DNA from: Chryseobacterium sp. StRB126
GTDB taxonomy: Bacteria > Bacteroidota > Bacteroidia > Flavobacteriales > Weeksellaceae
Direction: 5' to 3'
Assembly: GCF_000829375.1 (NCBI RefSeq)
Contig: NZ_AP014624.1
Coordinates: 4,650,001-4,714,000, forward strand
DNA length: 64,000 nucleotides
Under the pieces are notes generated by a model that saw only the letters and a list, made by a program, of their open reading frames with translations, ran no database searches and was not told the DNA's origin. The position numbers and the translations under genes are program-made. Positions 42,181-55,843 of the stretch are shown here, in pieces; the stretch's first letter is position 1, and every line of letters starts with the position of its first letter.

Positions 42181-44925
42181 TTACTTTTTAATGATCTTAA
42201 ATGTTTTTACCGTATCTCTGTTTGAAACTCTTACCAAATAATTTCCAGGAACTAAATTCACTAAATCAATTTGAGCTGAATTTGTATTGACTGTCTGATT
42301 TAAAACTTTCTGCCCTACCAGATTAAATACTTCTACTTTACCTATTGGAGCATCATTTTCTATATTTAATATTGATTTTACCGGATTAGGATAAATACGG
42401 AGTTTTGCAGATGCTCTAACATCGTCCGTTCCTAAATTGTCTACAATAATTTCATCAGCACCAATAGTTGGATTTACAGTTTTCCTTATCTCACCATCAA
42501 TATCTGTTGTTACTGTAGGAATTGGAGTTCCGGCAGCCGCTATTAATGGATTATTATTGATATCTAAATGTAAATCTGTAGCAGATACAAATACAGGTGC
42601 TACTCCCACAGAATTTGCATCTTTGGTTGTAAGAGTTCGCCATGCTGCTAATGTTGCATGATCTGTTCCTGCATTTAATTTAAGACTTCCTGTTCTAAAA
42701 CCGCCAGATTGAACACCTCCACTGTAAAAAGCATTATAATCTGAAATCAAATTATCAAAAGTTGTACTTGCCGTTCCAAAAGCATAAGTTTTAACTAACC
42801 CTCCACCTGTAGCAATCTGGGTTGTAGACATAATATTATTTTTCATTTCTAATGAAGGGTCAAGGCCAGATAGTGCTATACAGTAACTGGGATACTGCAA
42901 CGACTGTGATCCTCTGTTACCTGATAGGGAAATAGTATTGTTATATAATTTTGTCACGGAAGCTACAGCACCCACAACAAATATACCTGCAACTATAGAA
43001 GGATTTTTTGCCTGCCCCCTAACATTGTTGATCATATTATTCTGCAGGGTATTGGGAAGACCTGTATAAGTTCCTGAAATAGCAATTCCTACTGCGGAAT
43101 ACCCATCAGTATTTGTACTGACAACCCCGTCTATAATATTATTATTAACCATGGCCCCACTAATTCCACCACTACCTATGGCATCAAATTCTGCACTTGC
43201 CCGACCAATTCCTAATCCTGCTACATCTGTAGAAAGAGGACTTTCAACATATACTTTATTATAACTTACAATAGGGTTCATGTCATTATATAAAACTATT
43301 CCAGCCCGTAATATCTTATCAGTTCCTGTTGCAGATAAATCGTTCTGCTTTATAGTCGTTCCAATATTTTGATTATCCACGTTTTCACCTCTTGAAATGA
43401 TGCCGGTACTAACTTTTTTAACAGAACAGTTTTCAACTTTGTTTCCATCATTATCTTTTCCATTAAAACCAATTCCTGTATTACTGATACCGCCAGTAAT
43501 ATTTACATTTTTTACAGTATTATTTTTAGCACCGTTAGTACCTGATAAAAATCCAATCACTGCCTCATTATCACTAGTATTTCCTAAAATTGATAGCTCA
43601 CGCAGGGATGAATCACCACCAATCAGCTTACCGCCTACTGTAGCACCTGTTGCTGAACCGTTAATAGTAATATTATCAGTCCCTAGGAATTTAAGTAAAG
43701 AACCATAACCAGAACTATTTCCTGTGATTGATCTTGCTCCTCCAAATGGCTGAATCAATACAGCATGATCACCAATAATTTCGTTTAAGCCATTTTTACC
43801 TGTCTCCCCAGTTAAATCGGATATAATATTAATGGTGACAGGTCCTGATACCCCGTCAACGCTCTGGTTAAGTGCTTGAAAAATTCCACCGTCATTTGTT
43901 AATGAAGGATAATTCCCCCCTGCCCCAACAGTGTAAGTTCCTGCCATAGGTGGCAAAACATTTTTTATCGTTACTGTACTTGTACTGTTACCATTAATAG
44001 TTGTACCTGTAGGATTCGATAGTGTGATAGAAAATGTTTCATTATCATCTGCTGCGAGATCCGGTAAAGTAGTTACTGTAAAAGATTTAGGCTGCATATC
44101 ACCATCTGCCCAAGACAAAGTCCCGGATGCGGCATTGTAATCAGTGCCGGCAATTGCAGTCCCGTCACTGGTTGCATAGTCTACAGAAACAGCCCCTGTA
44201 GATCCGCCATTACGATTTACAGTAATTACCTGGTTTCTGTTTTCCAGCATAGTAGTAGCAGAATAATCTAATGATAAGGTCCCTGTAGCTCCCGGTGTAT
44301 CATATAAAATCTGAATATTAGGTTTTGTATTCATAATGATTCCGTTACCATTAAAAATAGGGTCAGTATTACTCTTCCAAACCTGTGTTTGAGCTGTAGC
44401 ATTATGCCATCTAAGAATTTTGTCTGTAGTACCTTTGCCAGGGGCATCACCTAAACTGGTTCCAACCAATACATGTAAATGATCTCCAGTATATGTAAAA
44501 GGAGCAGAAAAAGGCAGTGTAATCCATTTACCTGCTGCTACACTGGTACCAACAATAGTTCCGTTATAGACAAAGGTTAAACTTAATGGTAATGGATTAT
44601 AAATTTCTGCAGTTAAAGTTGAACTACCACTATTTTTTATCCCGATAAATACAGGAACATTTACGGGTGTATATGCAGTCTGAACAAAATACCGCAGCCC
44701 TGTTATTTTTGAGCCTGTAGGGATGTTCATTTCATTTTTTTGATAAACAGAAAGTACACGGTCATGCCCATACATTGCACTCAAAGGTCTGTTTTCAGTT
44801 GTTGTAAAAGTATTTCCTGATGGAATCGTTAATTGAGCGGAACTATTTGCACTGCAAAACAGAAGTGCAATAATAGCATACAAGGATTTACAGGAGTAAT
44901 CCTTTTTGATTTCTGATGTTTCCAA
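42181..44925 (-). CDS. Large secreted protein: Calx-beta, beta-helix and T9SS type A sorting domain
   Basis: About 914 residues if the TTG at 44923-44925 is the start; an ATG at 44982 gives 933. From the TTG the N-terminus is a reasonable signal peptide (SLYAIIALLFCSANSSA), and a TAATTTTG box at 44958-44965 lies inside the longer version, so I prefer the shorter. Domains in order: an N-terminal beta domain, Calx-beta (about 215-325, SVDYATSDGTAIAGTDYNAA), a long beta-helix region rich in NNIIDG/NNTI-like turns, and a T9SS sorting tail (LRIYPNPVKSILNIE to the C-terminal KTFKIIKK). It is exported by Sec and T9SS to the surface or medium. Possible adhesin or glycan-binding protein; the target is unknown. 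Confidence 0.8.
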   Translation of the reverse strand: METSEIKKDYSCKSLYAIIALLFCSANSSAQLTIPSGNTFTTTENRPLSAMYGHDRVLSVYQKNEMNIPTGSKITGLRYFVQTAYTPVNVPVFIGIKNSGSSTLTAEIYNPLPLSLTFVYNGTIVGTSVAAGKWITLPFSAPFTYTGDHLHVLVGTSLGDAPGKGTTDKILRWHNATAQTQVWKSNTDPIFNGNGIIMNTKPNIQILYDTPGATGTLSLDYSATTMLENRNQVITVNRNGGSTGAVSVDYATSDGTAIAGTDYNAASGTLSWADGDMQPKSFTVTTLPDLAADDNETFSITLSNPTGTTINGNSTSTVTIKNVLPPMAGTYTVGAGGNYPSLTNDGGIFQALNQSVDGVSGPVTINIISDLTGETGKNGLNEIIGDHAVLIQPFGGARSITGNSSGYGSLLKFLGTDNITINGSATGATVGGKLIGGDSSLRELSILGNTSDNEAVIGFLSGTNGAKNNTVKNVNITGGISNTGIGFNGKDNDGNKVENCSVKKVSTGIISRGENVDNQNIGTTIKQNDLSATGTDKILRAGIVLYNDMNPIVSYNKVYVESPLSTDVAGLGIGRASAEFDAIGSGGISGAMVNNNIIDGVVSTNTDGYSAVGIAISGTYTGLPNTLQNNMINNVRGQAKNPSIVAGIFVVGAVASVTKLYNNTISLSGNRGSQSLQYPSYCIALSGLDPSLEMKNNIMSTTQIATGGGLVKTYAFGTASTTFDNLISDYNAFYSGGVQSGGFRTGSLKLNAGTDHATLAAWRTLTTKDANSVGVAPVFVSATDLHLDINNNPLIAAAGTPIPTVTTDIDGEIRKTVNPTIGADEIIVDNLGTDDVRASAKLRIYPNPVKSILNIENDAPIGKVEVFNLVGQKVLNQTVNTNSAQIDLVNLVPGNYLVRVSNRDTVKTFKIIKK

Positions 44926-45333
44926 AGTTATTAGTTTGTTATTGTTTATAATACGTGCAAAATTACATAAAATTGCCAACATGCATGACTCAATTTTTTT
45001 TACTTGTATTAACTTCTTGCTGAAACTAAAAGCAAAGTAATATTATAGTCATCATTATAATATATAGATCATCTTCGTACAGACTACAACAAGATCATTA
45101 ATAAATCTTCTATATAAATCTACAATTCTTCCACTACTCTTACTGACTAACTGGAAAATTTTAACACAATATAATTTGATATTCGTCATCTTTTTTGTAT
45201 TACAATAATTGAATTTTAATTCTCCTTAATTGTGATAAAACTCATATTAATTCACCTTAAGATGAGCGTTAATAAATGTTAAAAAGCCCTATTTTCGCGT
45301 GATTCTAAAATAACTATTAATCAACAAAAGGGA
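44926..45333. other. Divergent intergenic region
   Basis: About 400 nt between the divergent T9SS genes. It contains the TAATTTTG box for the left gene (44958-44965) and, for the right operon, GTTAATAAATGTTAAAAAGC followed by TATTTTCG near 45293. The latter is an imperfect TAnnTTTG box about 35 nt before the ATG. It is otherwise A/T-rich with no gene or repeat seen. Confidence 0.45.
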
Positions 45334-46944
45334 ATGAAAAAACTTTATCTCAGTGCATGGGCTTTCTGCACCGTTTTAGGGGTATCTGCACAGGAAGTTG
45401 TTTGGCAAAAAAACATCAAATCCTCTACTCAGGATTTTTTAAGTCAAATTACCACGACCATCGATCAGCAATATCTTATTACAGGAAGCTCAATTCAAAT
45501 TAACAATCAATCACAGACCTCTAACAGCCAAAAACAAAACAATGGCTACGATTTTCATCTGATAAAACTCAATCAGCAAGGAAATGAAGCCTGGGAAAAA
45601 TATTTTTCGGGAAACAATCACGATTATTTATCTGCAACAATAACCACCCAGGACGGAGGTTTTCTTGTAGCCGGAACATCTTATTCAGGAAAGGGATTGG
45701 ATAAAAAAGATGACTCTAAAGGTGGATCTGATATCTGGCTGATCAGAATCAACGAATTCGGAGATGAATTATGGCAAAAAACGCTGGGAACTTCCTCCGA
45801 TGAGGAAGCCAGAGCAGTGATTCAAAGTACAGACTTGGGCTTTTTTGTTGCCGGAAATGTACAAAATTCTTCCAATGGTTATGGATCCAAAGATGTTTGG
45901 ATCACCAGACTGGATAAAGACGGAAAGGAACTCTCTCAACTGATATTAGGAGGAAAGGGCTTAGATGAAGTGGAGAAAATGATTCCAACAAAAGATGGTG
46001 GAGCCTTATTGGGAGTTTATTCAAGGAGCTCCGAGGTTAGAACCCGAGAAGAGAAGTCTTCTAGTGAAAGATCTGTTAGTTCAACAGCCATTAGCCAAAT
46101 GCCAAAAGCCAGCAGCAATTTCGGTGAAGGCGACTATTGGATAATCAAATTAGACAAAACAGGAAAAGTAGAATGGGAAAAGAACTTTGGAGGTAAAGGA
46201 GACGATCATATCAGAACGCTGGCATTAACCTCAAATGGCTATATCATTGGTGGAGAATCCAGATCCGAGAGATCCGGAAACAAAACGGTTGGTATTGAAG
46301 AAGGAACAGACCTTTGGATTATTGCTCTTAACGAAAGAGGCGATGAACGGTGGCAGAAGTCCTACAATTTCAAAAACCGTGATATTCTGATGGGAATGAG
46401 CGTTATTCATTCCGCAGATGACAAATCCTCAAAAGGAATTCTATTAGGTGGTTACACTCAGGCCGAAGGAAGAATAGAAAAAGACGATGAGACCTTCTGG
46501 ATGTTGTATCTGGATGGCAATGGAAATGAGCAATGGAGAAAACATATAACAGGAGAATCCAGGCAAAAAGAAGAAAGACTTTCAGACCTAAAGCTAAACA
46601 GGGATGGCTCAATTATCCTTGCTGGAACCAGTGCCAAAGAATTAGGAAAAGAGAACTGGAAGATTGTCAAGCTGGGTGACAAACAGGTGAATGATTTGAT
46701 TGAAAAATATGATATTAAAATCTATCCGAATCCGGTATCAGATTATGCTTATGTAGAAATTGGTTTTGATTTCAAAGAGGCTGATATTATACTGTATGAT
46801 ATGAGCGGAAGGCAGCTTCAGAACCTTAAAACGAAAAACAAGGTGACTAAGATGAATACCCAGAATTTAATTCAGGGAGCTTATTTAATGACCATAAAAA
46901 CTGATAATAACAAGACGGCGAATGCCAAACTGATTAAAAAATAA
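45334..46944 (+). CDS. Beta-propeller-like T9SS-sorted protein, first gene of the RHS operon
   Basis: The 536-residue protein has a signal peptide (MKKLYLSAWAFCTVLGVSAQ) and about seven repeats of the form GsDxWLIrlnexGdexWqk...DGGfLvAG (e.g. GGSDIWLIRINEFGDELWQK, TKDGGALLGVYSRS, GTDLWIIALNERGDERWQK). This suggests a beta propeller. The C-terminus is a T9SS type A sorting domain (IKIYPNPVSDYAYVEI to ANAKLIKK). Its stop is 5 nt before the first RHS-type gene, so it belongs to that operon and may anchor or present the RHS proteins at the surface; this is an inference. Confidence 0.8.
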   Translation: MKKLYLSAWAFCTVLGVSAQEVVWQKNIKSSTQDFLSQITTTIDQQYLITGSSIQINNQSQTSNSQKQNNGYDFHLIKLNQQGNEAWEKYFSGNNHDYLSATITTQDGGFLVAGTSYSGKGLDKKDDSKGGSDIWLIRINEFGDELWQKTLGTSSDEEARAVIQSTDLGFFVAGNVQNSSNGYGSKDVWITRLDKDGKELSQLILGGKGLDEVEKMIPTKDGGALLGVYSRSSEVRTREEKSSSERSVSSTAISQMPKASSNFGEGDYWIIKLDKTGKVEWEKNFGGKGDDHIRTLALTSNGYIIGGESRSERSGNKTVGIEEGTDLWIIALNERGDERWQKSYNFKNRDILMGMSVIHSADDKSSKGILLGGYTQAEGRIEKDDETFWMLYLDGNGNEQWRKHITGESRQKEERLSDLKLNRDGSIILAGTSAKELGKENWKIVKLGDKQVNDLIEKYDIKIYPNPVSDYAYVEIGFDFKEADIILYDMSGRQLQNLKTKNKVTKMNTQNLIQGAYLMTIKTDNNKTANAKLIKK

Positions 46945-46949
46945 GTACA

Positions 46950-49900
46950 ATGAAAAAAAATATAATATCAGTCACTATATTACTTTTCTCTTTATATAAT
47001 GCTCAAAGCTTAAACATTAAGTCCCCACAGAGTTATGAAATGGAAAGATATGGGAATGTTCCTGTTAATTTAAATGTTGGAGGAATTGATTTAAGTATTC
47101 CATTATTTGAGCAAAAATTTAACTCCATCGGAGATTTTAAACTGTCATTAAATTATAATTCTGCTGGATTCATACCCAACAAGAAATCAAATTATGTTGG
47201 ACAGGACTGGTTTTTAAATTTTGGCGGAGTTATTTCGAGAACCATCAATGGAATTGCTGATGACTCAGATGTCTCAGAAAATACATTTTCTTCAAAAGGA
47301 TTTCTTGTAGGAACCCGATTAGGTCCTAAATCAAATTTGGACGTCTATAATGGTGCTTATAGCACTTCTTATTGGAAAGATCATGTGTCAATAAATGGGT
47401 ACCAATATGAGCTTAGACCAGATAAGTTCAGCTTCAACTTCATGGGAATTTCAGGATATTTCTATATTGGAAATGATGGAATTCCAATTGCTGTTTCAGA
47501 AGATATGAATTTAAAGATAGATGTTTCTAATTTAGCCAATCAACAAAACTATGAGTGCGCTCCGCAAGATTCTGAAATCGTCATAACTGATGGAAAAGGT
47601 ATCAAATATTATTTTGGAGGTAATCATAACAACCTAGAGGTCTCCTATCAAATGGGAAACTCTAAGGATCCAGCACAATTTCTTCCAAATGGCCAAGGAA
47701 TATTTTCAATTACTAGCTGGTATTTGAGGAAGGTTGAATATCCCAATAACCATCTATTGGAAATAGAATATCTGAAATATAAGAAATTTGATTCTGATTG
47801 GGAAATGCCTGGCCTGGGAAACTTTTGTACTATAACCCAACCTCCTCAACAGTCATCATTTGATTTTGTAGAAGAATTCTTTGACTTTAATAAATATGTC
47901 AATCAGCGAAATCAACGTTTTAGCTATAATTATGATACCAGTATGGGAGGGTATCATGTTTGGGGTGATGGAAGTGGCTTCTCTTATCAGGCTCCATACT
48001 TTCAATATACACTTACCAAGAAGGCATTTCCATCAAAAATAATATTAGATGGAAAGCAACTTGTGGGTTTTAATTATACACGTTTTCCATCGAATGATAA
48101 TAATTATCAGTCTCTTAAATTAAATAGTGTAGAAATTAAGAATCAGGATGTTCTTATCAAAAAAATAGATTTTTCTTATTACAGAAATAAAGATACTTTT
48201 TTTCTTACCGCCATTACCTTTCCCAATAATACAAAATATACATTTGATTATTACAACAAAGAAAGCTTACCTAAATCAACGACGTTAGGAATTGATTTTT
48301 GGGGATTCTGGAATGGACAAGATGAAAATAGTAATTATTTGATTCCAAAATATTCATTTAATGCAGATACAGGGGATTATCAAGTAACAGGTACATCACG
48401 AAATTCTAATTCAAGTTTGGTAAATACCGGCTTGTTAAAGATTGTTAATTATCCAACTGGAGGAAATTCAACTTTTATCTATGAACCTCATACTTATTCA
48501 AAAAAACTTGAAAGAGATTTTTCTTCAGACTTTTTACCATACATAAAAAGCGAATCTGGAGCAGTTGGAGGAGCTAGAATTAGTAAAATTATAAACTTTG
48601 ATGGTGTAAATACGGTTGCAAGAGATTTTAAATATATTCGAAATTATGGCTCTGGATCAACCGAATCAAGTGGTGTTGCGACTCAAATCCTGAGATATAT
48701 GGATTATATTGATTATAAGAATGCGGGGGCTGGAAGAACCCAGGTTTTAACTGAAACAGCACAGAATATCTCAGAGAACTCCCTAAGTTCATCACCAATA
48801 AATTATAGTGAAGTTGCTGAATTAGCAAATAATGTATTTCAGAAAAAATATTATTTTAGTGATTATTCAACGAATCCGGATGCACTGGTGGAATATAGTA
48901 ATGTATCTGGATTAGATGATGTTAAACCATATAAATTGACAAAAAACTTTTTTATTAGACACAATTCCAATGATAATCAACGTGGAAAATTATTGAAGAC
49001 ACAAATCTTCAAAGACGGAAATGTAATACAGGAAGAAGAAAATACCTATACAACATTAGAAGCTCATCCATTATTAAAAAACAGTTTTTTTAGTAGAGTT
49101 CAACAATTATTACCTTGGGTACATTATCAAAAAGAATATCTATATCCATATTTATTAAACTCAGCCACAACACGTGACTATCTTAATGGAAATATAATAT
49201 CTATAAAAACGGATTATTTTTATGAAGGTAAAGAGCATTTAAATTTAACCAAAACAAAGACAAGCTATCCTACAAACGAAAATATTGAAAACGACTATCA
49301 ATATGCAACAGATGTAAGACTTGGATACTTTCCTTATGCTCAATATCCCGGGTTTGCTTTTATATATAATATGTTGTCTAAAAATGCAACTGGAATTCCT
49401 GTAGTCACAACAGCTTATAAAAATGGAGTTCTAAAAAAGAGGGAACTCATTCGCTATAATTCAGCTATATCACCAAGTGATAGGTTATCTTATTCAGAAG
49501 ATAAGACAATTCCCTCTACTCCAAATGTTCCTGATGTAAACTTTGCAACATTAGAAATATCATATAACCAATATGATGACAAAGGAAATCTTCAGCAGTA
49601 CACTACCAAAGATGGCCTTTCAACAGTAATCATCTGGGGTTATAACCAAACCCAGCCTATTGCCAAAATAGAAGGCGCGAAATTAACAGATATTCAGCAG
49701 TCGTTGATAGATTCGATTGTCAATGCTTCCAATGCTGATGCTTTATCGACTCCTAATGCTGATGAAACCATATTATTATCTGCTTTGAATGCATTCAGAA
49801 ATAATTTAGCTGCATATCAGGTCTCTACTTATACCTACGATCCTTTAATTGGAGTAAGAAGTATCACACCACCATCCGGAATCAGAGAAAGCTATCTCTA

Positions 49901-49982
49901 CGATTCAGCTAATAGACTAGAAAAAGTAGTCGATGCTAACGGTAAGGTGTTGAAGGAAATGAAATATAACTATAAACAATGA
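46950..49982 (+). CDS. Exported RHS-type protein, N-terminal half (no toxin end)
   Basis: The 1010-residue protein has a signal peptide (MKKNIISVTILLFSLYNAQS). Next come NVPVNLNVGGIDLSIPLFEQ and VGQDWFLNFGGVISRTINGI, the Bacteroidota RHS opening that resembles the 'VGLGWSLNAGGVI.R' block related to SpvB/TcdB starts. YD-type repeats follow, and the end is YTYDPLIGVRSITPPSGIRE and YLYDSANRLEKVVDANGKV. It lacks the RHS core motif and any C-terminal toxin; those are on the next gene. Together the two look like one RHS shell split in two polypeptides, as TcB and TcC are in Tc toxins. It starts 5 nt after the propeller gene. Confidence 0.75.
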   Translation: MKKNIISVTILLFSLYNAQSLNIKSPQSYEMERYGNVPVNLNVGGIDLSIPLFEQKFNSIGDFKLSLNYNSAGFIPNKKSNYVGQDWFLNFGGVISRTINGIADDSDVSENTFSSKGFLVGTRLGPKSNLDVYNGAYSTSYWKDHVSINGYQYELRPDKFSFNFMGISGYFYIGNDGIPIAVSEDMNLKIDVSNLANQQNYECAPQDSEIVITDGKGIKYYFGGNHNNLEVSYQMGNSKDPAQFLPNGQGIFSITSWYLRKVEYPNNHLLEIEYLKYKKFDSDWEMPGLGNFCTITQPPQQSSFDFVEEFFDFNKYVNQRNQRFSYNYDTSMGGYHVWGDGSGFSYQAPYFQYTLTKKAFPSKIILDGKQLVGFNYTRFPSNDNNYQSLKLNSVEIKNQDVLIKKIDFSYYRNKDTFFLTAITFPNNTKYTFDYYNKESLPKSTTLGIDFWGFWNGQDENSNYLIPKYSFNADTGDYQVTGTSRNSNSSLVNTGLLKIVNYPTGGNSTFIYEPHTYSKKLERDFSSDFLPYIKSESGAVGGARISKIINFDGVNTVARDFKYIRNYGSGSTESSGVATQILRYMDYIDYKNAGAGRTQVLTETAQNISENSLSSSPINYSEVAELANNVFQKKYYFSDYSTNPDALVEYSNVSGLDDVKPYKLTKNFFIRHNSNDNQRGKLLKTQIFKDGNVIQEEENTYTTLEAHPLLKNSFFSRVQQLLPWVHYQKEYLYPYLLNSATTRDYLNGNIISIKTDYFYEGKEHLNLTKTKTSYPTNENIENDYQYATDVRLGYFPYAQYPGFAFIYNMLSKNATGIPVVTTAYKNGVLKKRELIRYNSAISPSDRLSYSEDKTIPSTPNVPDVNFATLEISYNQYDDKGNLQQYTTKDGLSTVIIWGYNQTQPIAKIEGAKLTDIQQSLIDSIVNASNADALSTPNADETILLSALNAFRNNLAAYQVSTYTYDPLIGVRSITPPSGIRESYLYDSANRLEKVVDANGKVLKEMKYNYKQ

Positions 49983-50118
49983 TCACTCAAATTATGGAAA
50001 AAGTAATATTAACTACAGAAATGTTAGCAGTTCAATTATATATATCCACAGATGTTGTCAGTCCAACATCTGCATCAGCTCATTTCTATTCACAAAACTA
50101 ATCTACCAACATAAAATA

Positions 50119-53100
50119 ATGTATAAAAAAACATATATAAGCATTGGACTGTTATGGAGCCTTCATCATTTTGGGCAAATAGTCTTAACTGCTCCTCCCG
50201 CTCCTAATACTGAAGTGGCAGATCCCGTGAGTATACGCATGCTTCCGGGATTCAACTTCAATTCTGCTAATGGAACTTTTCGTGCGTACATCGGCGGAGG
50301 AACCTCTGGTAATGGTGATACCTACACTCCTATCATAGTAGATTATTCATCCAATAATATTCCTGGTACCGAAAATTATATTTATACCAGACAGTATTTA
50401 GTACCCACTGCAGTTTCAGACGGATCTCTTCAACAAATACAAAATGTTCAGTTTTTTGATGGATTGGGAAGGCCTAAACAGGCAATCAGTATAAAATCTA
50501 CCTCTACAGGAAAAGATCTGGTAACCCATATTCCTTATGACGGATTTGGAAGACAGGTTGATAGCTGGCTCCCGGTTCCTATGGCCTCATTGAACGGCAA
50601 TATCCAAACCGGAGTAGAAATCAGTGCTAATAGCTATTATCAGGCTAATGGCATTAATGATTCCTATCCCTTTACTCATAAAACCCTGGAAAACTCTCCG
50701 CTTGATAGAGTTTTAAGTCAGAAAAATCCTGGTAGTGACTGGCAGAACAAACCTGTTATTTTTGGGTATGAAACCAATGTACAAGGTGAAGTAAAAAAAT
50801 ATACTACTGTCACTACATGGGCAGACGGAGCAACTTCCTCTGAACTAAGCATATCTGGTACCTATGGAGAAGCACAGTTGTATAAAAACACGATAACAGA
50901 TGAAGACAATAATAAAACCATAGAATTTAAAAATGGTAAAGGGCAGACTCTGTTGGTAAGAAAAGTCATCAGTTCCTCAGAAAATGCAGATACTTATTAC
51001 GTCTATAATGAATACGATCAATTGGCATTTGTTATTCCACCTTTAGCTTCTACTGCGTCAGTCGTTTCTGCTACAATGAAAGAAGATCTTTGTTATCAAT
51101 ACAGATATGATAGTAAAAGCAGGCTTGTAGAAAAGAAACTTCCTGGTAAAGGTTGGGAAAAGATGGTATATGATAAATCAGACAGACTGATTCTCACTCA
51201 GGATGCGAATCTGAAGTCTGCCAATAAATGGATCATTACCAAGTATGATAAGTTGGGAAGAGTGGCCTATACAGGATTTTTAACAGGCGGTGAAAGAGCA
51301 GGTCGTCAGAATGAAATCAAGGATCTGGTAATTACTGAAGATAGAAATACAACAGGATTTACCCGAAATGGTATCACTGCATACTATACAGATAATTACT
51401 TTATTGGAGAAATACCAACCATTCTGAATGTTAATTATTATGATACTTATCCTCAGGAAGCACCCTCAGTGACTACGGTTTTAAATCAGGACGTATTACC
51501 ACAGGCGCAGAATTCGGATGTAAGTACTAAAAGCCTTCCTACGGCCAGCTATACTAAAAATATCGAAAATGATAGCTGGACAAAAGTATACACTTATTAT
51601 GATAAGAGAGGGCGAGCAATCGCTATCCATTCTTTAAATCATTTGGGCGGATATACCAAGACTGAAAGTTCTCTGAAATTTTCAGGAGTACCGGAATACA
51701 CCCTTATTGAGCATAAAAGAACAGCCAATGACCCGAAGATCAACATTAAAGAAACCTTTGAATACGATCATCAGGAAAGATTGGTAAGACATTGGAATCA
51801 GGTAAATGGTGGAGCTCAGGAACTTCTTGCTGAAAACCTTTATAATGATCTGGGGCAATTGCAGACTAAAAACGTAGGAAATACTACAGGCAGCCCATTG
51901 CAGCGTGTCAAATATGCTTACAATATAAGAGGTTGGATGACTAAACTTAATGATCCTTCAAATTTGCAGAATAAACTGTTTGCCTTTGAGCTGCGTTATA
52001 GTAACCCCAACAATCAGTATTCAGGTTCTGCAAGGTATAATGGAAACATTTCCCAGATGTCATGGATTACTCAAAACGATGCCGTACTGAGAAATTATTC
52101 TTATGAATACGATGCTCTTAACCGACTTAAAGAAGGTCGCTTCTGGGATGCCATGAATCTGGATAGAGGAGAATACCATGAACAGCTTACCTATGATTTT
52201 AACGGAAATATTAAAACGCTTTTAAGAAGAGGAAAGCAGCTTCCAGGATATACAGCACCAGAAGTAATGGATCATTTGGAATACCATTATGAGAATGGAG
52301 AACAAAGCAATAAGTTGTCTTATCTTAAAGAAATCGGAACAGGAAATGCCCTAAGTGGCTATCCATTAGCGTCAGGAAGTACCGGAAGTACTATTACCTA
52401 CGATGCAAATGGAAATATGACCACCCAGTTGGATAAAGGAATTTCCTCCATTCAGTATAATTATCTAAATTTACCTGGAAAGATTACCCAAAACTCCAAA
52501 GTAACCGATTATCTTTACAGAGCAGATGGAGTGAAGGTAAGAAAGGTTTTCGGAACAGAAACAACCGATTATCTGGATGGCTTTCAGTATACCAATTCAA
52601 TATTAAAATTCTTCCCAACAGCAGAAGGTTATTTTAATGTTGAAACCGGAAAATATGTTTACAATTATACAGATCACCTTGGAAATACCCGATTGAGCTA
52701 TTCTAAAAATGGATTAGGAGCAGAAATTATTGAGGAAAATAATTATTATCCATTTGGATTAAAGCATGAGGGGTATAATACTTTATTGGGGAATTCTACC
52801 TATCAGTATAAGTACCAAGGACAAGAATTACAAGAGACAGGTTTTTACTCATTTAAGTGGCGGAATTACATGCCTGATGTAGGAAGGTTCTTTAATATAG
52901 ATCCTCTTTCTGAAAAATATTCTTATCAATCACATTACAATTTCTCGGAAAATGCCGTAGTTGCACATAGAGAATTAGAAGGTCTTGAAAAAGTATTTTT
53001 CCAAAATGTTTTATTTAAAGATGAAAGATTTCAAAAAGCTTATCAGGCAGAAAGACAGACTTCTGGCGGAAAAGAATTTTCAAAGGCATTAAGTTCACAA

Positions 53101-53535
53101 AATAAAATCAACGTTCTCTATACTAATTTTTCTACTAAATATGCCACAGGTATTGCTCCATTAATAGATAGTAAGAAAAATTTCTCTGAAATTTCTAAAA
53201 CTTATAAGATTGGGGTAAGCGCAAAAGAATATGATAAAATTTCAGAAAATGGAACAAAAAAAATACAGCTTATAGGCATTAGTTATGGAGATAAAAGTAC
53301 ACCTGCTTTCGATGTTGCAGCAACTATAAATCATGAAGAAGTAGCACATGGTACAGAAGCAATTAAAAAGAATGAAGAACAGTCTAATGCTTCAGGACAT
53401 AAAAGTTATTATGGTGAAAACAGAGAAGCATCTCCAGAGGACAAAGAGGTTTTAACAGATAAAAAATATGAGGGAACAAAAGCAAATACTAATCTAAAAG
53501 AATTGGAACAGATTCTTGAGAAACCTAAAAAATAA
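50119..53535 (+). CDS. DUF6443/RHS core protein with variable C-terminal tip
   Basis: The 1138-residue protein has a signal peptide (1-19), a DUF6443-like N-terminal domain (about 75-160, YTRQYLVPT, FFDGLGRPKQAISIKSTSTG, YDGFGRQVDSWLPVP), many YD repeats and the RHS core end (NNYYPFGLKHEGYN, KYQGQELQETGFYSFKWRNY, DVGRFFNIDPLSEKYSYQS). After ELEGLEK (about residue 955) a ~180-residue unique tip begins, the usual position of a polymorphic toxin. The tip contains INHEEVAHG (His1072-Glu1073...His1077), an HExxxH arrangement. A lipoprotein gene follows 5 nt after the stop and is the natural immunity candidate. Confidence 0.8.
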   Translation: MYKKTYISIGLLWSLHHFGQIVLTAPPAPNTEVADPVSIRMLPGFNFNSANGTFRAYIGGGTSGNGDTYTPIIVDYSSNNIPGTENYIYTRQYLVPTAVSDGSLQQIQNVQFFDGLGRPKQAISIKSTSTGKDLVTHIPYDGFGRQVDSWLPVPMASLNGNIQTGVEISANSYYQANGINDSYPFTHKTLENSPLDRVLSQKNPGSDWQNKPVIFGYETNVQGEVKKYTTVTTWADGATSSELSISGTYGEAQLYKNTITDEDNNKTIEFKNGKGQTLLVRKVISSSENADTYYVYNEYDQLAFVIPPLASTASVVSATMKEDLCYQYRYDSKSRLVEKKLPGKGWEKMVYDKSDRLILTQDANLKSANKWIITKYDKLGRVAYTGFLTGGERAGRQNEIKDLVITEDRNTTGFTRNGITAYYTDNYFIGEIPTILNVNYYDTYPQEAPSVTTVLNQDVLPQAQNSDVSTKSLPTASYTKNIENDSWTKVYTYYDKRGRAIAIHSLNHLGGYTKTESSLKFSGVPEYTLIEHKRTANDPKINIKETFEYDHQERLVRHWNQVNGGAQELLAENLYNDLGQLQTKNVGNTTGSPLQRVKYAYNIRGWMTKLNDPSNLQNKLFAFELRYSNPNNQYSGSARYNGNISQMSWITQNDAVLRNYSYEYDALNRLKEGRFWDAMNLDRGEYHEQLTYDFNGNIKTLLRRGKQLPGYTAPEVMDHLEYHYENGEQSNKLSYLKEIGTGNALSGYPLASGSTGSTITYDANGNMTTQLDKGISSIQYNYLNLPGKITQNSKVTDYLYRADGVKVRKVFGTETTDYLDGFQYTNSILKFFPTAEGYFNVETGKYVYNYTDHLGNTRLSYSKNGLGAEIIEENNYYPFGLKHEGYNTLLGNSTYQYKYQGQELQETGFYSFKWRNYMPDVGRFFNIDPLSEKYSYQSHYNFSENAVVAHRELEGLEKVFFQNVLFKDERFQKAYQAERQTSGGKEFSKALSSQNKINVLYTNFSTKYATGIAPLIDSKKNFSEISKTYKIGVSAKEYDKISENGTKKIQLIGISYGDKSTPAFDVAATINHEEVAHGTEAIKKNEEQSNASGHKSYYGENREASPEDKEVLTDKKYEGTKANTNLKELEQILEKPKK

Positions 53536-53540
53536 AAACT

Positions 53541-54101
53541 ATGAAAGTGAAAATAATAATTTTATGTAATTTTTGGTTATTTTTCTTAAATTGTAAAGGA
53601 AAACACGATATAATAGATAATTCTTTTTCTAAAAAATTTAACGTTGACAAAACAAGTCTCGTAATTAATTCCAATAATGAGGAAAACCAGACCTTTATTA
53701 CGGGAAAGTTCAAATATTTTTCCAATAATTATTCTATTAAAAATCCAATTTACATTAAGGATAGTATTTATTATTATGATAAAAATAATATCTTATTTGA
53801 TTTTAGTTCTAAAAAAGAACCAGGTTCCTTTATTATAAATGATTCATTACATTTAAAAGTTTCATTTTTTAACGATATAATTTCAGATCAAAATAAATTT
53901 CGACTGTTTAAAATTGACAACGTGGAAAATTATTACACATTAAACTTAACAAAAGTTTATATTGCAAATTATAAGTACGGCATAGTGGGTGAATTTATAG
54001 TTACAAAAGAAAATAATGAATGGTTAATAACCAATATTATTGGTTATTTTCCTAATGATAATTTGTTTCTTTCAAAATTTAAAAAAGTTAAATTAGAATG
54101 A
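53541..54101 (+). CDS. Lipoprotein, candidate immunity protein of the RHS tip
   Basis: The 186-residue protein has a lipoprotein signal (MKVKIIILCNFWLFFLNC, Cys18) and a Lys/Asp/Asn-rich, beta-strand-rich body (TFITGKFKYFSNNYSIKN, YYTLNLTKVYIANYKYG). No known family. It begins 5 nt after the RHS stop and is clearly A/T-richer than the RHS gene, as is common for exchangeable immunity genes. A periplasm- or outer-membrane-facing lipoprotein immunity protein would fit a toxin that acts in the periplasm or on envelope proteins. Inferred from position only. Confidence 0.6.
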   Translation: MKVKIIILCNFWLFFLNCKGKHDIIDNSFSKKFNVDKTSLVINSNNEENQTFITGKFKYFSNNYSIKNPIYIKDSIYYYDKNNILFDFSSKKEPGSFIINDSLHLKVSFFNDIISDQNKFRLFKIDNVENYYTLNLTKVYIANYKYGIVGEFIVTKENNEWLITNIIGYFPNDNLFLSKFKKVKLE

Positions 54102-54274: not shown

Positions 54275-55843
54275 AAAGAGGCTGTCTCAAAAGACAGTCT
54301 CTTTTTTATTGCAATTTTTTGTGAGGGACTTAGTTTTGTATTTTAATTATTTAGGATTTAGTTTTTTGATGAGTTGTGGATGTATTTTTTTTAAAAAAGA
54401 GCAGATTTTACCCTGCAAGCGCTAATTTTCTTAGATTGTGAGCAATAGCAACCAGGCCGATTTCTATTTCGACTTTATTTTGTCCTCTAAGCATAAATCT
54501 TTTAAATCCTTTGTTATGTTTGATCTGAGCAAAAACAGGTTCTACATCGTGGCATCTTTGTTTTCTAAGCTTTACTCCACGTTTGGTATTAAGAAGCTTA
54601 TGAGCCTTATGCCGGAGCTTTGAAAGTTTTGGATTAGAAGGTGAAGAAGTTATGGTTTTAGTTTTCTGGTCTTTATCAAAGTAATTATACTTGATATAGG
54701 CTTTGACTTTTCTCTTTTGAAGAAAAATATAATTCTCTTCTGATCCATATCCTGCATCAGTCACTATCTCCTTGGGAGTTTTACGATAAAGATGTTCAAA
54801 ATTATCAATATGAGGGAGCAGTGTTTTAGTGTCCCCAGGATTAGGATGCAGCGTATAGTTAAGGATAAACTGATTCTCGGTACTGAGCTGAAGATTGTAA
54901 GCGGCTTTAAGCTGTCCGTTACCCATATGATCCTCTTTCATACGCATGAAAGAAGCATCAGAATCTGTTTTTGAATAGCTGTTCCTGCCCCGGAGAATTT
55001 CCTGCTGTTTCTCATATTTTTCAAGGTTATCCGGCCAGTTTTTTTTTGCATAATTAATCTTCTGACGGACTTTAGGACAGATTTTCTTCTTTCTCAAAGT
55101 AGAGTCTATCGTTTCTATAGCAGATTTTATTTTTTCTTTATCCATAGACTTAAAGGTTACCTCAGAAGTATCTTTCATTTCTTCCCCAGCTATTTCCTGA
55201 GTGTAATTCCACAAATCTTCAAGCTGGGACTCTATACGTTCTTTATTCTTTTTGATCGCCTTTCCCCATACAAATGTATAACGATTGGCATTGGCTTCTA
55301 TTTTGGTACCATCGGTAAAAATAGTCTGAAGGCTTACCAGCCCTTCTTTCTCTAAATACACTACAATTTGTGCGAAGATCTCTTTGAGTTCTCCTTTTAA
55401 TCTTTCACTTCTAAAACGGTTCAAAGTATTATGATCAGGACGATTCATGGCACTGAGCCACATAAAATGAACATTTTCTTTGAGAGCCTGTTCCAGCTTT
55501 CTGCTAGAATAAATATTACACAAATAGCCATACACCAATACTTTCAAAAGCATTTTCGGGTGATACACCGATGTGCCCCCTGGTTTATAATTACGGATTA
55601 AATTACTGATATCCAGACCGTCTATAACTTCTGAAACAATTCGTACAGGATGATTAGCTTCTATTAACTCCGATAAATTCGGAGGAAATAGAAAATTTTG
55701 CTTGGGATTGTAATCTTTAAAGACTACCTTTGAATTACTTAACACACAGCAAATTAATCAATTTGCAAATATTAGGAAAGCAAAAGCTTTCCTTTTTTTA
55801 TGCTTGCAAAAAAAGACTGCCTCACTTTTGAGACAGCCTCTTT
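54275..55843 (-). mobile_element. IS1182-family insertion sequence
   Basis: 1569 bp with perfect 19-bp terminal inverted repeats AAAGAGGCTGTCTCAAAAG at 54275-54293 and its complement at 55825-55843. It carries one intact transposase gene. No clear target-site duplication is visible (left flank ends AAACA, right flank begins CTATA). The left end also forms a hairpin with TTTTTT (54274-54305) that can act as a terminator. The insertion lies in the shared tail of the toxin cassette. Confidence 0.9.
54408..55745 (-). CDS. IS1182-family transposase
   Basis: The 445-residue protein has the IS1182/IS5-like layout. An N-terminal DUF772-type domain (VYHPKMLLKVLVYGYLCNIYSSRKLEQ) is followed by a DDE catalytic domain with FTDGTKIEANANRYTFVWGK, VTDAGYGSEENYIF and HDVEPVFAQIKHNKGFKRF (the DDE residues). 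The frame is complete and within normal length, so it may be active. It lies inside the terminal repeats at 54275-55843. Confidence 0.93.
   Translation of the reverse strand: MLSNSKVVFKDYNPKQNFLFPPNLSELIEANHPVRIVSEVIDGLDISNLIRNYKPGGTSVYHPKMLLKVLVYGYLCNIYSSRKLEQALKENVHFMWLSAMNRPDHNTLNRFRSERLKGELKEIFAQIVVYLEKEGLVSLQTIFTDGTKIEANANRYTFVWGKAIKKNKERIESQLEDLWNYTQEIAGEEMKDTSEVTFKSMDKEKIKSAIETIDSTLRKKKICPKVRQKINYAKKNWPDNLEKYEKQQEILRGRNSYSKTDSDASFMRMKEDHMGNGQLKAAYNLQLSTENQFILNYTLHPNPGDTKTLLPHIDNFEHLYRKTPKEIVTDAGYGSEENYIFLQKRKVKAYIKYNYFDKDQKTKTITSSPSNPKLSKLRHKAHKLLNTKRGVKLRKQRCHDVEPVFAQIKHNKGFKRFMLRGQNKVEIEIGLVAIAHNLRKLALAG

What the first reader, a model, noticed from the sequence alone, without database searches (positions are those of the whole stretch)
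45334..54101. Split, exported RHS system in one operon: propeller, two RHS halves, lipoprotein immunity
Four same-strand genes with 5-nt gaps (one gap of 136 nt) encode a T9SS-sorted propeller, an exported RHS protein with only the N-terminal part of the fold, an exported DUF6443/RHS core protein with a variable tip, and a lipoprotein. Classical RHS or Tc toxins need one large shell, or TcB plus TcC. Here the shell looks divided between two Sec-exported proteins that would have to assemble outside the cytoplasm, perhaps on the T9SS propeller. This would be a contact-dependent toxin delivered without T6SS.
Basis: partly seen in the sequence, partly recalled or inferred. Interest (0 to 1): 0.7.

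Follow-up and report, generated by a model that had tools for sequence, protein, structure and literature searches.

The report
Two-piece exported Rhs toxin system
This Chryseobacterium-type bacterium carries a gene set for what looks like an interbacterial toxin whose Rhs body is split between two exported proteins, with a swappable tip and a matching protection protein; some relatives encode the two body parts as one protein.

Summary
In detail: four co-directional genes encode a T9SS-sorted propeller-like protein (P), an exported 1010-aa protein (A), an exported 1138-aa DUF6443/Rhs-core protein with a variable tip (B), and a lipoprotein (I). The operon recurs seven times in this genome. Among A genes in 80 named loci, P (or a P piece) is the upstream neighbour in 67 of 73 testable cases and B the downstream one in 59 of 70.

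The split is real: of 63 strong A-head hits in 247 phylum genomes, 12 (seven genomes, one family) share one ORF with DUF6443 and 49 have it in a separate downstream ORF. Tip plus I behaves as a toxin–immunity cassette: the window tip occurs in 4 of 173 congeners, each time followed by I, and at a relative's orthologous site it sits displaced behind a different resident tip. A is variable too: 44 head clusters in 74 proteins, tails essentially one.

It probably works like an exported TcB/TcC-style Rhs toxin. T9SS carriage is inferred: all 48 A-positive genomes have SprA; 42 lack the T6SS-iii sheath gene (this genome has it). Structure prediction never ran, so whether A and B close one cocoon is untested. 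New variant of a known kind.

The parts
45334..46944 (+). P: Sec-exported, T9SS type A sorted propeller-like protein (536 aa)
   Evidence: PF18962 and TIGR04183; 78-98% identical across the seven operons; full-length copies in this genome only at the seven operons
46950..49982 (+). A: exported N-terminal half of the Rhs body (1010 aa)
   Evidence: N-terminal hydrophobic signal-like stretch; RHS_repeat at 969-999; profile match to YenB E 0.005; head found in one ORF with B-like sequence in relatives
47013..49289 (+). variable head of A (about residues 22-780), SpvB-like in its first half
   Evidence: 44 clusters at >45% identity among 74 A proteins; unlinked to B across 43 loci
49500..49979 (+). 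conserved tail of A (residues 851-1010), possible docking seam to B
   Evidence: mean identity 0.60-0.64 against 0.22-0.28 in the head; 73 of 74 in one cluster
49994..50101 (+). 35-codon remnant of an exported ~375-aa gene that lies between A and B in sister operons
   Evidence: 0 of 500 shuffles reach the score; coordinates
50119..53535 (+). B: exported C-terminal half of the Rhs body plus tip (1138 aa)
   Evidence: DUF6443 and TIGR03696; profile match to TccC3/YenC2 and mosquito SGS1
52984..53532 (+). variable tip of B (about residues 956-1138), probable metallopeptidase-like toxin
   Evidence: identity falls to 0.11-0.17 after residue ~955 across the seven operons; singleton among 100 tips
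53332..53349 (+). HEEVAH (HExxxH) motif of the tip
   Evidence: H126, E127, E128, A130, H131 of the aligned fragment kept in both homologues; coordinates
53541..54101 (+). I: lipoprotein, probable immunity protein of the tip
   Evidence: homologue directly after the tip homologue in all 4 genomes that hold the tip; lipobox-like Cys18 conserved

Best explanation
An exported, surface-acting polymorphic Rhs toxin of Bacteroidota with a two-gene body. Steps: (1) P, A and B are made from one operon and carry Sec-type signals (inferred from sequence). (2) A (SpvB-like variable head plus conserved YD-repeat tail) and B (DUF6443, Rhs repeats, Rhs core) associate in the periplasm or outside, probably at the A tail / B N-terminus, into one Rhs particle with the B tip, as TcB and TcC do (inferred from fused homologues; not shown physically). 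(3) The particle is carried to or held at the cell surface with the T9SS-sorted P (inference from operon order and SprA co-occurrence; the weakest step). (4) On contact the tip enters or acts on a neighbour; in this operon it is probably a zinc peptidase acting in the periplasm, because its cognate immunity protein is a lipoprotein (inferred). (5) Kin and self are protected by I. Tips with their immunity genes, and A heads, are exchanged by recombination (supported by the sequence comparisons).
For: Operon conserved: 110 of 118 congeners have A; 30 of 30 congeneric loci have P directly upstream of A and 26 of 30 B within the 1.5-kb flank; named loci 67/73 P upstream and 59/70 B downstream. Fusion: of 63 A-head hits of at least 150 bits, 12 share one ORF with DUF6443 (7 genomes, family f23), 49 have it in a separate downstream ORF (22 genomes), 2 have none within 9 kb; six of the fused ORFs were read and hold the A head (299-319 bits) followed by B middle and core. 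Length budget: fused span 1786-2153 aa, A+B 1858. Tip-I pairing 4 of 4; I also in 4 tip-less congeners. Displacement at the orthologous site of G038: B 89% identical over 1-956, then a different tip; the window tip displaced with ~150 aa of core at 94%. 100 tips form 52 clusters, 88 with a small downstream ORF, with weak-to-clear matches to M91, Tox-MPTase2, JAB-like toxin, lipase and amidase_3 families. 14 of 100 tips hold HExxH against 0.4 expected from shuffles. Exported: A 71/74, B 49/50, P 16/16 by a crude signal rule. SprA in 48 of 48 A-head-positive genomes (190 of 247 overall) and TssC in 6 of 48.
Against: No structure or complex was predicted (28 attempts, queue full). A and B lack T9SS tails, so how they cross the outer membrane is unexplained. 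Most relatives outside Weeksellaceae/Flavobacterium that were read have no P, and none of ten neighbouring genes scanned gave a T9SS tail. T9SS co-occurrence is confounded by phylogeny: SprA-negative genomes fall largely in one family. This genome and 116 of 118 congeners have a T6SS-iii TssC match. A-B co-variation across 43 loci is weak (A tail against B N-terminus r 0.23, Mantel p 0.004; A head r about 0), although r was 0.76-0.83 among six operons here. The window B lacks the usual DPxG end of the Rhs core (has ELEGLE). The window tip has HExxxH, not HExxH. Toxicity is untested.
Confidence: 0.6

Rival explanations
1. B alone is a complete Rhs cocoon with its tip; A is a separate SpvB-like exported partner (targeting head, cap or adaptor) that binds it but adds no wall.
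For: B has ~870 aa of Rhs sequence, not far below single-chain T6SS Rhs shells (size recalled); A has a single recognised RHS repeat, at its end; A heads reassort freely against B and A can be tandemly duplicated before B (L126, L139).
Against: In six read ORFs the A head, then B middle and core, are one chain, as SpvB and Rhs parts are in the 3384-aa protein of L154; A's YD-repeat tail is its most conserved part.
Confidence: 0.25
2. A and B are independent T9SS- or vesicle-released exoproteins or adhesins; operon linkage is regulatory, and the tips are adhesive or enzymatic variants, not toxins.
For: Signal peptides; T9SS neighbour; no toxicity data.
Against: Unrelated tips with paired small genes, displaced tip cassettes, immunity genes kept without the tip, and toxin-family matches in tips.
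Confidence: 0.08
3. Delivery is by the genome's T6SS-iii, with the Sec-like N-termini misread.
For: TssC match in this genome and 116 of 118 congeners.
Against: 49 of 50 B and 71 of 74 A have signal-like N-termini; 42 of 48 A-head-positive genomes lack TssC; G071 has A but no TssC match; no PAAR domain was reported in A or B.
Confidence: 0.05

Closest known systems
Tc toxin TcB-TcC pair (e.g. YenB-YenC2; TcdB2-TccC3)
   Same: Two proteins share one Rhs body; first has an SpvB-like N-terminus, second the Rhs core and variable C-terminus; profile matches A to YenB (E 0.005) and B to TccC3 and YenC2.
   Different: A has no FG-GAP or TcdB_midN match; no large TcA-like gene in the seven operons; both halves carry Sec-like signals; dedicated T9SS-sorted neighbour; paired immunity genes.
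T6SS and other single-chain Rhs polymorphic toxins
   Same: Rhs core, variable tip, downstream immunity gene, displaced orphan tips.
   Different: No PAAR or T6SS-type N-terminus found; exported; body split over two genes.
Apibacter Rhs proteins with SpvB/TcdB N-termini next to T9SS type A sorting-domain genes (PMC8125069, passages seen)
   Same: Flavobacterial Rhs genes next to T9SS-sorted genes, proposed there to be T9SS-associated; that paper is prior art for the T9SS link.
   Different: The passages describe no split of the body between two exported proteins, no P-A-B operon and no variable head. A single-chain SpvB/FG-GAP/TcdB/RHS giant also occurs in this genus (L154).
TANFOR polymorphic toxins of Bacteroidetes (PMC7073777, sections 6 and 9 read)
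   Same: Sec-signal polymorphic toxins next to genes with T9SS tails; immunity genes; T9SS export proposed; some tips encoded by the next gene.
   Different: Defined by an N-terminal TANFOR domain; no model of that name came up for A or B; sections read describe no Rhs body.
Large rhs gene with SpvB/TcdB signatures and displaced tips in 'Candidatus Ornithobacterium hominis' (PMC6421346, passages seen)
   Same: Flavobacterial Rhs gene with dissociated tips and unique downstream genes.
   Different: One gene of more than 9 kb, not split.

Membership tests
Rhs polymorphic toxin | Rhs repeat-associated core domain | tested here: met
   TIGR03696 39.1 bits, cut-off 32.5
Rhs polymorphic toxin | C-terminus variable past the core | tested here: met
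   identity 0.50-0.69 in core blocks, 0.11-0.17 after ~955; 52 clusters in 100 tips
Rhs polymorphic toxin | cognate immunity gene directly downstream | tested here: met
   genetic linkage only: 4 of 4 genomes with the tip
Rhs polymorphic toxin | orphan tips by C-terminal displacement | tested here: met
   G038 orthologous site; 44 of 100 tips in ORFs of at most 900 aa, 32 by a strict rule
Rhs polymorphic toxin | beta-cocoon enclosing the tip | not testable with these tools
Rhs polymorphic toxin | toxicity of the tip neutralised by immunity protein | not testable with these tools
   needs an experiment
T6SS Rhs effector | PAAR or other T6SS N-terminal domain | tested here: not met
   no such match in A or B
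Tc toxin (TcB/TcC) | SpvB domain in the first protein | tested here: inconclusive
   no Pfam SpvB in window A; profile E 0.005 to YenB; SpvB 19.5 bits, under its cut-off 22, in the L164 A; A head matches the SpvB part of L154
Tc toxin (TcB/TcC) | FG-GAP propeller and TcdB middle domains in TcB | tested here: not met
   no match in A at E up to 1
Tc toxin (TcB/TcC) | TcA translocation subunit encoded nearby | tested here: not met
   no TcA-sized gene among the seven operons' members (genes judged by size, not by a TcA profile)
Tc toxin (TcB/TcC) | TcC-like Rhs core in the second protein | tested here: met
   profile matches TcdB2-TccC3 (E 4.5e-17) and YenC2 (E 1.6e-15)
T9SS type A cargo | C-terminal sorting domain | tested here: met
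   P only: PF18962 43.5 bits, TIGR04183 40.6 bits; A and B: no match
TANFOR polymorphic toxin | N-terminal TANFOR domain | tested here: inconclusive
   no such name among matches, but I did not verify that the libraries hold the model

The most novel reading that the evidence does not exclude
A two-ended combinatorial weapon: a constant seam (A tail plus B core) joins interchangeable heads on A, which choose the target or receptor, to interchangeable toxin-immunity tips on B; the halves cross the inner membrane separately, meet outside the cytoplasm and are displayed on the T9SS-sorted propeller. Splitting the Rhs body into two genes lets heads and tips be swapped independently.
Probability: 0.33. 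Interest if true: 0.8.

Novelty: new variant of a known kind. Interest (0 to 1): 0.6.

Why it matters
If the reading holds, Bacteroidota have an abundant, multi-copy contact toxin system (A matched in 110 of 118 congeners) whose Rhs body is assembled outside the cytoplasm from two exported proteins. It would give T9SS-bearing bacteria a route to interbacterial antagonism, a question that PMC7073777 and PMC8125069 leave open, and a natural split Rhs body in which head, body and tip are recombined. The natural fused and split forms make assembly directly testable.

Tried and rejected

P-A fusion in L038/L040, suspected from ~1527-aa open frames, was rejected: the frame is A with a ~510-aa C-terminal extension, P being a separate ORF.

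HExxH in the window tip, my first impression, was rejected: the letters are HEEVAH, i.e. HExxxH. That DPP III (M49) peptidases have such a spacing is recalled, not tested.

Strong A-tail/B co-variation: r 0.76-0.83 over 15 pairs of six own operons (the operon with an interrupted A, c21, was left out) did not hold up over 43 loci (r 0.10-0.23; 0.11-0.16 against the B N-terminus in 41 Chryseobacterium-like loci), and neighbouring DNA may simply travel together; I do not use it as proof of contact.

Absence of T6SS as an argument for T9SS delivery was weakened (116 of 118 congeners have a TssC match, one of them, G066, only a fragment) and partly restored.

Rows dropped or set aside: of 20 distant loci fetched, L154 to L159 gave only partial or no A/B profile matches (L157 has a weak A-head piece with B pieces in one 2175-aa ORF) and are not counted as fused or split. 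In one search only A-head hits of at least 150 bits were counted; 12 fused calls rest on equal open-frame lengths, only six being read, and one (G290:C12, 1368 aa) has a DUF6443 match below the cut-off. Searches scored at most 6 candidates per genome, so copy numbers are lower bounds. In one search the best 80 of at least 498 confirmed stretches were kept.

Full report
WHAT IS THERE. The four ORFs are as stated. P (45334-46944) ends in a T9SS type A tail; A (46950-49982) has one recognised RHS repeat at its end; B (50119-53535) has DUF6443, an RHS repeat and the Rhs core; I (53541-54101) looks like a lipoprotein. A and B have N-terminal signal-like stretches and no T9SS tail. By a crude rule (basic N-terminus plus hydrophobic stretch, not SignalP) 71 of 74 A, 49 of 50 B and 16 of 16 P have such a stretch.

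SEVEN OPERONS IN ONE GENOME. The 5.5-Mb single-contig genome holds seven full-length B homologues and seven full-length P, each in a P-A-B-small-gene operon. P is 78-98% identical between operons, A 22-78%, B 41-84%; past B residue ~955 identity falls to 0.11-0.17. One operon (c21) has an interrupted A; another (c23) has A, a truncated B start, a P remnant, a second A in two frames, then B.

CONSERVATION. A is matched in 110 of 118 congeneric genomes. Of 30 loci fetched there (one of them the window's own), 30 have P directly upstream of A and 26 have B within the 1.5-kb flank. In 80 named loci chosen by A similarity only (best 80 of at least 498), 78 A ORFs of at least 900 aa were judged. Upstream: P or a P piece 67, another A 4, other 2, contig end 5. 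Downstream: B 59, another A 5, an extra 281-408-aa gene 5, a 134-aa gene 1, contig end 8. The extra gene also lies between A and B in L085 and L131, whose A is broken. The window's 136-nt gap encodes a 35-codon remnant of it: its peptide aligns to the start of that gene above all 500 shuffles in each of three comparisons; relatives L076, L127 and G038 carry similar remnants (for G038 two of three comparisons were met by 1 and 8 of 500 shuffles).

THE SPLIT. DUF6443 is matched in 43 of 247 phylum genomes and the A head in 48 of 247. Of 63 A-head hits of at least 150 bits, 12 lie in the same ORF as a downstream DUF6443 (seven genomes, all of one unnamed family, f23), 49 have it in a separate downstream ORF (22 genomes of other families), and 2 have none within 9 kb. 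Six fused ORFs of 2069-2433 aa were read: each has the A head at 299-319 bits, then B middle and B core profiles in that order. Eight further loci show A and B as separate neighbouring ORFs (L160-L167, nine pairs). The fused span is 1786-2153 aa; window A plus B is 1858 aa. This is the classical fusion argument that A and B work together and make one functional unit; it does not show the geometry.

RELATION TO Tc TOXINS. With an alignment profile, A matches the TcB protein YenB weakly (E 0.005) and B matches TccC3, YenC2, mosquito SGS1 and a teneurin-like protein (E 1e-22 to 4e-6 among 18 sequences up to E 0.01). A 3384-aa single-chain SpvB/FG-GAP/TcdB/RHS protein of the same genus (L154) aligns with the A head at its SpvB part and with B segments at its end. 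A itself has no FG-GAP or TcdB middle domain match. So A/B resembles TcB/TcC in plan but is not a Tc toxin by the features tested.

TIP AND IMMUNITY. The window tip is found in 4 of 173 congeners; in each the I homologue follows directly, at 79% and 46% identity in G105 and G413 and in broken pieces in G038. In the three other genomes the tip is an orphan. I is found in 8 of 173: these four plus G028 (full length, 75%, upstream of a P gene) and fragments in G114, G043 and G370. At the G038 site that is syntenic with the window (katG side), B is 89% identical over residues 1-956 and then has another tip, while the window's tip, with ~150 residues of core, lies displaced downstream (residues 805-1048 at 94%). 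This is C-terminal displacement seen between orthologous sites. From own and named loci 100 distinct tips were taken: 52 clusters, the window's a singleton. 44 are in ORFs of at most 900 aa; 32 by a strict rule that leaves out edge and long ORFs. 88 of 100 have a small downstream ORF: 38 lipoprotein-like, 19 signal/TM, 8 other TM, 23 soluble by a crude rule. Pfam at E 0.01 (not gathering cut-offs) gives M91 4, Toxin-JAB1 3, Lipase_3 3, Tox-MPTase2 2 and single matches such as Amidase_3, Ntox24 and phospholipases; the window tip has none. 14 of 100 hold HExxH against 0.4 per 100 in shuffles; their neighbours look exported in 11 of 12 cases against 46 of 76 for other tips (one-sided Fisher p 0.03). 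The window tip's conserved HEEVAH is HExxxH, so its class as a metallopeptidase is inference.

VARIABLE HEAD. In 74 A proteins residues 22-750 form 44 clusters at >45% identity, residues 851-1010 essentially one (73 of 74). Across 43 loci the head is one linked block (r 0.85-0.88) that is unlinked to the tail and to B (r about 0); the last 80 residues of A are weakly linked to the start of B (r 0.23, Mantel p 0.004). In a 25-row tree of the head the window groups with a Marinilabiliales and a Flavobacterium sequence with full support, other Chryseobacterium heads fall elsewhere, and fused and split forms intermix (several long branches). Tandem A genes occur (L126 two, L139 four). Heads therefore seem to be exchanged as tips are.

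SECRETION ROUTE. SprA is found in 190 of 247 genomes and in all 48 A-head-positive ones, but SprA-negative genomes fall largely in one family, so this is weak. TssC of T6SS-iii is found in 12 of 247 and in 6 of the 48 (23 of the 29 genomes with strong heads lack it); other T6SS types were not searched. In the genus 116 of 118 have a TssC match, this genome included; G071 has A and no TssC match. P is restricted in what I read to Weeksellaceae and Flavobacterium-like loci; elsewhere A-B stands without it, and ten neighbours scanned showed no T9SS tail. How A and B cross the outer membrane is open.

LITERATURE. PMC8125069 (passages) already notes Apibacter Rhs proteins with SpvB/TcdB N-termini adjacent to T9SS sorting-domain genes and proposes a T9SS link; PMC7073777 (sections 6 and 9) proposes T9SS export of TANFOR toxins; [quoted passage not shown] PMC5524665, PMC11205867, PMC10202324 and PMC12419801 (passages) add no split body. 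Hence new variant of a known kind.

VERDICT. Polymorphic toxin-immunity system: about 0.85. A and B acting as one particle: about 0.7. P/T9SS display: about 0.45. Overall mechanism as stated: 0.6.

Noticed in passing
window 49994-50101: 35-codon remnant of an exported ~375-aa gene that sits between A and B in seven sister operons; its role is unknown.
   Followed up: partly
L023/L027, genome 2832899-2844964: Rearranged operon: P, A, truncated B start, P remnant, second A in two frames, B.
   Followed up: partly
L021, genome 382072-385801: A of operon c21 is interrupted; a separate 127-aa ORF downstream resembles the C-terminal extensions of longer A proteins (L037, L038, L040, L072).
   Followed up: partly
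L139 and L126: Tandem A genes: four after one P in L139, two before B in L126.
   Followed up: no
L186 (G028): Full-length homologue of the immunity protein without the tip, directly upstream of a P gene.
   Followed up: partly
L154, 6651-16802: 3384-aa single-chain SpvB/FG-GAP/TcdB/RHS protein in the same genus, next to a 461-aa protein with a sub-threshold T9SS tail.
   Followed up: partly
window 54408-55745: IS1182-family transposase directly downstream of the operon on the other strand.
   Followed up: no
window 42181-44982: 933-aa T9SS-sorted protein with a Calx-beta domain upstream of the operon, opposite strand.
   Followed up: no
window B residues ~948-955: The Rhs core of the window B ends in ELEGLE instead of the usual DPxG; 12 of 100 tips show an ExEGL end. 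Whether this affects self-cleavage is unknown.
   Followed up: no
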